This document shows, in pieces, positions 34,563 to 36,639 of a DNA stretch of 64,000 nt. Position numbers and translations under genes: made by a program. Under the pieces are notes generated by a model. That model had not been told where the DNA came from. It was given only the letters and a program-made list of their open reading frames with translations, and did no database searches. Location of the stretch: the NCBI RefSeq assembly GCF_020382885.2, contig NC_058495.1, positions 5,015,627-5,079,626 on the forward strand, given 5' to 3'. This DNA is from Scatophagus argus. Lineage: Eukaryota; Chordata; Actinopteri; Scatophagidae. Within the stretch, counting starts at the first letter, position 1, and every line of letters starts with the position of its first letter.

Positions 34563-36639
34563 ATGAAAGTGCTCAGCGTTGTCCTTGTTTTGGTGCTATG
34601 TGTGTGCAGAGGAGCTTTAGGTGTGCAGGTTAAGGTGAGTATCACTTGTTCTTGGAAATATTGCTGTATTATCTCATCTGTCAGGCTGTTTGGTTCGTTT
34701 CTTTCTATTTTTTTCTTACTTTTAATCCTCTAACTGCATCTTAGAAATAGTTATGGTTGACATCAGGTGGTCCTTTTTTGGAGGCTTTGCAATCCATACA
34801 GCATGCAACACTTACTGTCCTTAGACAAGAAACCTAAGGTAGAGCAACATGTCTCTCTGACCTCTCCCAGTACCACATGCAATAGATATAATGTATACAG
34901 AATTTTAAAAAAAATACACAAATTTTGATCACAAAAATATAGATATAGGTTGTAAAACATAAGCCAGCCAGATAGGTAGAACCTGAGATACACACCCTCC
35001 TCTCCAACATGCAGAGCTGGAAAGAAGGCCACACAAACACGGAACAGACTGTCCTGTGTTTGAAGCATTCACACTGATAGGAGGGACGGGTAAACACACA
35101 GAGGGGGAGAGAGATAACATGCAAAGCAGGTAGACAGGAGAGGCTGAATCTGCTGAGCAACAATGACCTAGATCCAAACATGTGGATGAGGTGCCAGCAG
35201 GCTCATGTTCTCTCTAAGCTGCAAAGCCACAACTAAAGTGGTTCTCCAGTCTTCTCTTCCCATTCAATTTTGAGAGCTCAAGACCTTTACAGCACACACT
35301 GTCTCTCTAGCACCTGCACTTGGAAGATTTTAATTGTTACCGGTATAGGTTTTTCTCTTTGTGCCTCATAGTTCTTATTCCTTCCCCTTTCCAGGTTGGA
35401 GACAAGAGCTTCCCCTTGGAGGCAGTGAAGGAGATGAAGGAGCTGTTGGATTTAGATGACAACATTAGCCCTCACCTTGCTGAGACGAGCATTGTAGCCA
35501 TCTGCGAAAACCCTCTCCTGCCTCAGATCTTCCAGCCAGTGTGTCAGGGGAAGGGAGCAGGCATCGTTTTCTCCAACCTAGGTGAGACTGAGCCAAGGAC
35601 AAACAAATGAAAATGAAATGAGATATGTTAAATAGAGGACATCAGAATTGTTTTGGCACAAACAAATATTTTTATTGTGTGTTGCTCCCAAGTCTTCTGA
35701 TTTAGAAAGAAAGAAAGAAAGAACATGCCATGTTTGGATTGTATGTTCTTGAAACTATTAACATTATAGAAAACATTTGGTAATGTTTTACACTTTTGTT
35801 ATTGCAAATTATTCCCATGAAAAGACAAAGCCCTAACAGCAACTGTTAATATCTTCCAACTTTTTCACTCAGCCCCAAGGCCTCTGGTTCATAATGATGA
35901 CATGAAGCCTTTACAAACAGGTCAAAAATATACAGTTTAGGTCTAAACAATGTCCTCAAACAGCTGGGCGTCGTTATTCAAACAGGAGTGCAATTCTTGG
36001 TCGTTATTGTCAGCTGTGGTTGGTGCATTACTGAGCATTCATGGCACCATATCAACAGTAGCCACTTTCATTATAATTTCACAGAGTTTAGTGATGTGTT
36101 TGCAATAGTTTCTGGCCTTGATTTAATCTTTTCAGCAGTCAATGCAGACGTCTAAACAAGAAATTACCACACCGCCTCTGAGAGACATTACACAACAATT
36201 TTATTACTCGGGCAGTGGTTCTCTTGCAGACTTGATGACAAACACATTGACAAACAGTCACAGGCTCGCTCAAGGATTAGCTGTGTACACATCCTACTAT
36301 GCACGTCCTGAAAATGTTGCATGATAAAGTGGCACTAGAATGATAATCCGAGACAAGAGGCCTGTGGAAAGCTGTGCAAATAGACTCTGGGGACAGTTAA
36401 AGGTCATTAGACACAGATGGAATCATTGTAGCTGTACTCAGACGATACAGATCACAATAACTGTATTAGCATTTTAGAAATCTGAAAAACTGGGCCTTAG
36501 GTGGTACAAGAATATCCTTTAGGTCAGATGAATATTTATGTTTCCTTTTTTTTCCTTATATCTTACAGTGTATATTATCACGCCTTTGGATCCTTGTGAA
36601 ATATGTGCCAACCCCTCTTGCTTTGGGTGTCTGAACTGA
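34563..36639 (+). CDS. guca2b: Uroguanylin-like precursor with unusual C-terminal peptide
   Basis: The exons are 34563-34634, 35395-35581 and 36569-36639, joining to 109 residues. Both intron phases (0, then 1) equal those of the upstream guca2a, so the two are tandem duplicates. Residues 1-20 or so form a signal peptide. The prosegment carries FPLEAVKEMKELLD and a Cys pair (ICENPLLPQIFQPVC). The C-terminus reads PLDPCEICANPSCFGCLN and then stop. The Asp-Pro before the first Cys, the Asn-containing CEICAN core and residues after the last Cys are uroguanylin traits. The usual Ala-Cys-Thr-Gly-Cys, however, is Ser-Cys-Phe-Gly-Cys here. All four cysteines remain, so the disulphide frame is intact. 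The expected role is a guanylate cyclase C agonist secreted by gut and kidney; the Thr-to-Phe change could alter potency or receptor choice. The reading frame is intact with no sign of decay. Confidence 0.9.
35703..35722 (+). repeat. (GAAA)n microsatellite in guca2b intron 2
   Basis: Consecutive aaag/gaaa units. Confidence 0.85.

What the first reader, a model, noticed from the sequence alone, without database searches (positions are those of the whole stretch)
36569..36639. Uroguanylin-like peptide without the canonical Ala-Cys-Thr-Gly-Cys end
All four cysteines are kept, but the last loop reads Ser-Cys-Phe-Gly-Cys-Leu-Asn after an Asn-Pro. In the guanylin family the Thr between Cys 3 and Cys 4 is nearly always small and polar and contributes to guanylate cyclase C binding. 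A Phe there, in an otherwise intact gene with conserved prosegment and splice sites, suggests a functional shift (weaker agonist, other receptor subtype, or a lineage-specific hormone) rather than decay. The Asn-Pro before Cys 3 is not usual for guanylins; from memory an Asn-Pro also occurs there in enterobacterial heat-stable peptides that act on the same receptor.
Basis: partly seen in the sequence, partly recalled or inferred. Interest (0 to 1): 0.7.

Follow-up and report, generated by a model that had tools for sequence, protein, structure and literature searches.

The report
Fish uroguanylin with remodelled receptor loop
An apparently intact fish gut-hormone gene of the uroguanylin type has an altered receptor-binding loop that resembles, in one turn, the bacterial diarrhoea peptides acting on the same receptor, which makes it an interesting but untested variant of a known hormone.

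Summary
An intact three-exon uroguanylin-type gene lies at 34563-36639 (+); exon 3 (36569-36639) ends LDPCEICANPSCFGCLN-stop. Pfam assigns the precursor to Guanylin (E 1.7e-24). An intact tandem paralogue with a canonical ring lies at 25916-26865. No other guanylin-type ring exists in six frames of the window, so a hidden canonical exon 3 is unlikely here. Pro10, Ser11 and Phe13 occur in none of the 13 published peptides in one review. The peptide matches Pfam Enterotoxin_ST only below cut-off and lacks the third disulfide, so it is a hormone, not an ST. Most likely it is a working GC-C agonist with altered tuning. The functional shift is inferred: no orthologue, transcript or receptor data could be reached, and the own-genome search did not complete (9 attempts). 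Whether this is one species' oddity or the norm of a fish group is open and decides how surprising it is.

The parts
34563..34634 (+). guca2b-like exon 1: start codon and signal-peptide-like stretch; donor gtgagt, phase 0
   Evidence: signal peptide judged by eye
35395..35581 (+). guca2b-like exon 2: conserved prosegment with two cysteines; acceptor ccag, donor gtgaga, phase 1
36569..36639 (+). guca2b-like exon 3: end of prosegment, variant hormone ring, stop
36586..36636 (+). probable mature hormone LDPCEICANPSCFGCLN (N-terminal cut inferred by analogy with eel uroguanylin)
   Evidence: processing site is inference
34488..34495 (+). TATA-like CTTATAAG upstream of exon 1
   Evidence: position; resemblance judged by eye
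34455..34467 (+). HNF1-like site (10 of 12 consensus letters; 9 places in the window score 10 or more), weak
   Evidence: consensus and role recalled
36956..36961 (+). poly(A) signal AATAAA
25916..25993 (+). guca2a-like paralogue exon 1
26502..26694 (+). guca2a-like paralogue exon 2
26807..26865 (+). guca2a-like paralogue exon 3 with canonical ring MDVCEICAFAACTGC and stop

Best explanation
This is a functional teleost uroguanylin gene whose hormone has a remodelled receptor-binding face. Shown: intact precursor, splice sites, stop and ring cysteines; tandem canonical paralogue. Inferred: the precursor is secreted from the gut epithelium, folded by its prosegment and cut before the ring; the 1-3/2-4 disulfides form; the peptide binds guanylyl cyclase C and raises cGMP. 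Asn-Pro-Ser probably forms the type I turn that the literature describes for STa (the Asn side chain can still bond to the backbone amide of the small residue after Pro). The Pro and the two-residue Leu-Asn tail should hold the peptide in its active topological form, partly doing the work of the missing third disulfide. Phe13 adds a hydrophobic side chain on the last turn (Gly14, needed for that turn, is kept), tuning affinity to the fish's own GC-C, or to one of two GC-C paralogues if it has both as eels do.
For: Pfam Guanylin 86.4 bits over the full profile, E 1.7e-24, cut-off 25. Solved proguanylin 1o8r matched over residues 22-107, E 5.7e-08. Intact GT-AG exons with the same phases as the paralogue. 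Precursors 39 of 91 columns identical; NG86 dN 0.55, dS 3.25 over 104 codons, dS saturated: old duplicates still constrained overall. Ring closest to eel uroguanylin (11 of 15, next best 9 of 15). Central Asn-Pro-Ala turn is the STa receptor site and Gly at the third place of the last turn is required (PMC9920858 passages). C-terminal residues and central side chains control topoisomer exchange (PMC3153297 passage). Eels have GC-C1 and GC-C2 (PMC8215749 passage).
Against: No transcript, peptide, receptor or orthologue evidence. Position 11 is Ala in 13 of 13 published hormones, and changing the matching Ala of STa is reported to cost more than 100-fold in toxicity (to Thr) or to abolish receptor binding (Leu, in a combined analogue) (PMC9920858 section), so Ser may weaken binding, at least to mammalian GC-C. 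dN/dS between old duplicates cannot rule out recent relaxation of exon 3. Exon 3 taken alone scores 22.1 bits for Guanylin, under the cut-off of 25 that the whole precursor passes.
Confidence: 0.62

Rival explanations
1. Relaxed constraint: the tandem guanylin covers the function, and the uroguanylin ring is drifting while the frame is still open.
For: Replacements at positions 1, 10, 11 and 13 and one added residue at the end against eel uroguanylin, one of them at an otherwise invariant Ala; a canonical paralogue starts 8.6 kb upstream; a preprint finds only guca2a expressed in zebrafish best4+ cells, with the authors' caution about annotation (PMC12724568 passage).
Against: All cysteines, Glu5, Ile6, Asn9, Gly14, frame, splice sites and poly(A) signal are kept. 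Going from the paralogue's Thr codon ACT to Phe TTT takes two base changes (codons). The changes form a plausible turn (inference).
Confidence: 0.18
2. Changed target: the peptide now acts mainly as a weak or partial agonist or antagonist, or on another receptor (a GC-C paralogue or non-GC-C receptor).
For: Changes cluster at the receptor-binding turn and last turn; a change of the matching Ala in STa is costly; a non-GC-C receptor for these peptides has been reported in mammalian kidney (PMC3153297 passage).
Against: No receptor data; the ring scaffold is that of a GC-C ligand.
Confidence: 0.15
3. Gene-model error: another exon 3 with the canonical end is used.
For: None found.
Against: Only two ring-pattern places in six frames of 64 kb, the other belonging to the complete paralogue; in the 40 best tblastn rows with both precursors there is no third exon copy.
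Confidence: 0.02

Closest known systems
Eel uroguanylin (PDPCEICANAACTGCL, printed in PMC4045495 Table 1)
   Same: 11 of the first 15 residues, including Asp-Pro before Cys 1, CEICAN and Gly14, and a Leu after the last Cys
   Different: Ala10 to Pro, Ala11 to Ser, Thr13 to Phe, first residue Leu, one more residue (Asn) at the end
Tandem guanylin/renoguanylin-type paralogue in this window (25916-26865)
   Same: Precursor layout, exon phases, prosegment (39 of 91 columns identical)
   Different: Canonical ring AFAACTGC, no tail; 13 of 15 like eel renoguanylin
Bacterial heat-stable enterotoxins of the STa family (Pfam Enterotoxin_ST)
   Same: Asn-Pro at the receptor-binding turn and an aligned stretch over the whole ring; same receptor expected
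   Different: Two disulfides instead of three; a vertebrate three-exon precursor; Pfam ST score below cut-off (14.6 against 21.1 bits). From memory one Vibrio ST (NAG-ST) resembles this ring more closely than the E. coli ones; not retrieved, letters not given

Membership tests
Guanylin family (Pfam PF02058) | Profile score above curated cut-off | tested here: met
   86.4 bits for the whole precursor, cut-off 25
Guanylin family (Pfam PF02058) | Three exons, two introns | tested here: met
   structure stated for GN and UGN in PMC4045495 passage
Guanylin family (Pfam PF02058) | Four ring cysteines at C-x2-C-x4-C-x2-C with Gly before the last | tested here: met
Guanylin family (Pfam PF02058) | 1-3/2-4 disulfides and GC-C activation | not testable with these tools
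   Needs peptide chemistry and a receptor assay
Uroguanylin subtype | Asn at position 9 (guanylins have Tyr or Phe) | tested here: met
   Asn9; Asn in 6 of 6 listed uroguanylins
Uroguanylin subtype | Two acidic residues before Cys 1 (pH sensor of the human hormone) | tested here: not met
   One (LDPC), as in eel uroguanylin (PDPC); 5 of the 6 listed uroguanylins have two, so eel fails it too. pH role from PMC5368960 passage
Uroguanylin subtype | Thr at position 13 | tested here: not met
   Phe; Thr in 6 of 6 listed uroguanylins
Heat-stable enterotoxin STa family | Six cysteines, three disulfides | tested here: not met
   Four ring cysteines; criterion from PMC3153297 passage
Heat-stable enterotoxin STa family | Pfam Enterotoxin_ST above cut-off | tested here: not met
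   14.6 bits whole precursor, 17.6 bits exon 3 alone, cut-off 21.1
Heat-stable enterotoxin STa family | Asn-Pro-Ala receptor-binding turn | tested here: inconclusive
   Asn-Pro-Ser: two of three residues; criterion from PMC9920858

The most novel reading that the evidence does not exclude
The hormone and its receptor in this fish lineage have moved, under pressure from ST-making aquatic bacteria or by convergence, to a toxin-like ligand; or aquatic STs were modelled on a fish uroguanylin of this kind rather than on mammalian hormones, so the Asn-Pro turn thought to tell toxin from hormone is a host feature in some fishes.
Probability: 0.12. Interest if true: 0.8.

Novelty: new variant of a known kind. 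Interest (0 to 1): 0.48.

Why it matters
The Asn-Pro-Ala turn is described as a site by which antibodies could tell STa from host hormones, because guanylin and uroguanylin differ there (PMC9920858 passage). A vertebrate hormone with Asn-Pro-Ser there is a natural test of what the turn does, with only two disulfides. A review reports that STa peptides vary in host range and that guanylins and GC-C appear to co-evolve, with primates and bats as examples (PMC11308195 passage, citing Carey et al. 2021, not read); a fish case would extend that.

Tried and rejected
Alternative canonical exon 3: searched by pattern in six frames (the first pattern had a wrong spacing and found nothing, the relaxed one and one search found the two rings) and by tblastn of both precursors (40 best rows printed); none found. 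Relatives by exon 2 in genome contigs (141 pattern matches, 0 confirmed) and viral contigs (9 matches, 0 confirmed); these are not fish collections, so this says nothing about fish. NCBIfam, a prokaryote library: no match for either precursor. The PDB sequence search holds only chains of 20 residues or more, so solved mature peptides of this family could not appear. The bacterial promoter and terminator scan upstream of exon 1 gave 0 promoter-like and 2 terminator-like sites and means nothing for an animal gene. Printed sequence fragments of this ring: one search found 44 papers, and none of the 20 listed concerned guanylins by title; one search found 188 papers with 2 or more terms, and none of the 25 listed paired guanylin with the fragments CFGC or NPSC. 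Fish guca2b papers: searches gave no fish uroguanylin sequence besides the eel's in the listings or in the passages I read. Four primary eel and toadfish papers cited were looked up by id and are not held. Structure prediction was not tried: the stated rule asks for proteins read letter for letter from the DNA, and this one is spliced. YN00 failed with a math error; only NG86 is reported.

Considered and dropped: counting the Pfam ST score as membership. In the same precursor the ST score is 14.6 bits with the natural ring and 11.3 with the eel uroguanylin ring put in (which also drops the final Asn), while the Guanylin score is 86.4 against 91.3. The shift towards ST is real but small. The paralogue gave no ST match.

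Full report
What is there. The window carries two complete guanylin-family genes in tandem on the + strand. The finding's gene has exons 34563-34634, 35395-35581 and 36569-36639; the paralogue has exons 25916-25993, 26502-26694 and 26807-26865. Both use GT-AG introns with the same phases. Each precursor is 109 aa and scores far above the Guanylin cut-off (86.4 bits; 93.4 bits for the full paralogue; cut-off 25). A PDB search with the finding's precursor hits solved proguanylin 1o8r (E 5.7e-08); the other four listed matches have E-values of 0.62 or more and are unrelated by name. That library leaves out chains under 20 residues, so mature peptides could not appear.

Is exon 3 the right one? 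The ring pattern C..C....C.GC occurs at two places in six frames of 64 kb, one per gene, and on average 0.0 times in 60 mononucleotide shuffles (places). In the 40 best rows of a sensitive tblastn with both precursors there is no third copy of any exon. A poly(A) signal follows at 36956.

How unusual is the ring? A review prints 13 mature peptides. Against these, the window hormone is closest to eel uroguanylin (11 of 15), the others at 7 to 9 of 15; the paralogue is closest to eel renoguanylin (13 of 15). Pro10, Ser11 and Phe13 are each seen in 0 of 13; the tail Leu-Asn is longer than any listed (0 or 1 residue). The only fish among the 13 is the eel (three peptides), so rarity among fishes is not established. 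That the source is a teleost is inferred from this closeness; no tool named the species.

Meaning of the changed residues. [quoted passage not shown] The window hormone has Asn-Pro-Ser. The last turn needs Gly at its third place; it is kept. C-terminal residues and central side chains control exchange between the active and inactive topological forms of the hormones (PMC3153297 passage), so Pro10 and the Leu-Asn tail may hold the active form (inference). Asn9 is said to protect uroguanylin from chymotrypsin (PMC4045495 passage); Phe13 could offer a new site (inference). Only one acidic residue precedes Cys 1, as in eel; two are linked to pH dependence in the human hormone (PMC5368960 passage), so weaker pH dependence is expected (inference).

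Results against a strong agonist. The Ala at position 11 is invariant in 13 of 13 hormones, and changing the matching Ala of STa is reported to lower toxicity over 100-fold (Thr) or, in a combined analogue with Leu there, to abolish receptor binding (PMC9920858 section). Ser is smaller than both, but a loss of potency at mammalian receptors is quite possible.

Toxin-like or hormone? The ST profile matches residues 96-107 at 14.6 bits, below its cut-off of 21.1. Exon 3 alone gives 17.6 for ST and 22.1 for Guanylin, both below their cut-offs. Swapping in the eel ring lowers the ST score to 11.3 and raises the Guanylin score from 86.4 to 91.3. So the changes move the peptide a little towards ST, but it lacks the third disulfide. 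Of the features tested it meets those of the guanylin family and misses two marks of the uroguanylin subtype (Thr13 and the acidic pair, the latter also missing in eel).

Selection. Between the two old duplicates dN is 0.55 and dS 3.25 over 104 codons (NG86, dS saturated). This fits long constraint of the precursor and says nothing specific on exon 3. No orthologue could be reached: the prokaryote and viral collections gave nothing, and the own-genome search did not complete.

Literature. Ten searches showed, in the listings and passages I saw, no report of this ring or of an Asn-Pro uroguanylin. Several listings were capped (for example 20 of 235, 25 of 188), and the library lacks most subscription papers; four primary eel and toadfish papers that I looked up by id are not held. 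Fish databases may well hold the same ring in many species. A review passage reports co-evolution of guanylins and GC-C and variable host range of STa (PMC11308195). Of no paper did I read the whole text: passages only, and one section of PMC9920858.

Verdict. Observation confirmed; hormone gene very likely functional; altered tuning likely but untested; the arms-race or mimicry reading is open and is the interesting one.

Noticed in passing
window 597-1586 (+): Open frame with a beta-lactamase-type serine hydrolase domain (Pfam PF00144, E 4.1e-20), probably a LACTB-like gene (name recalled).
   Followed up: partly
window 4604-7407 (-): Two open frames of a rhodopsin-type GPCR (PF00001); sequence looks like a neuromedin U receptor (recalled).
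   Followed up: partly
window 57182-60761 (-): At least three open frames matching alkaline phosphatase, probably exons of one gene (PF00245).
   Followed up: partly
window 39303-39374 (+): tRNA-Pro (AGG) gene, found by ARAGORN and as a tRNA by Rfam.
   Followed up: no
window 21387-21434 and 28948-28995: 48-base inverted repeat pair, 98% complementary, 7.5 kb apart, flanking the guanylin paralogue; perhaps a dispersed repeat.
   Followed up: no
window 26151-26306: Imperfect 43-base inverted repeat inside intron 1 of the paralogue.
   Followed up: no
window 37042-37110: AC microsatellite with a 23-base higher-order unit just beyond the poly(A) signal.
   Followed up: no
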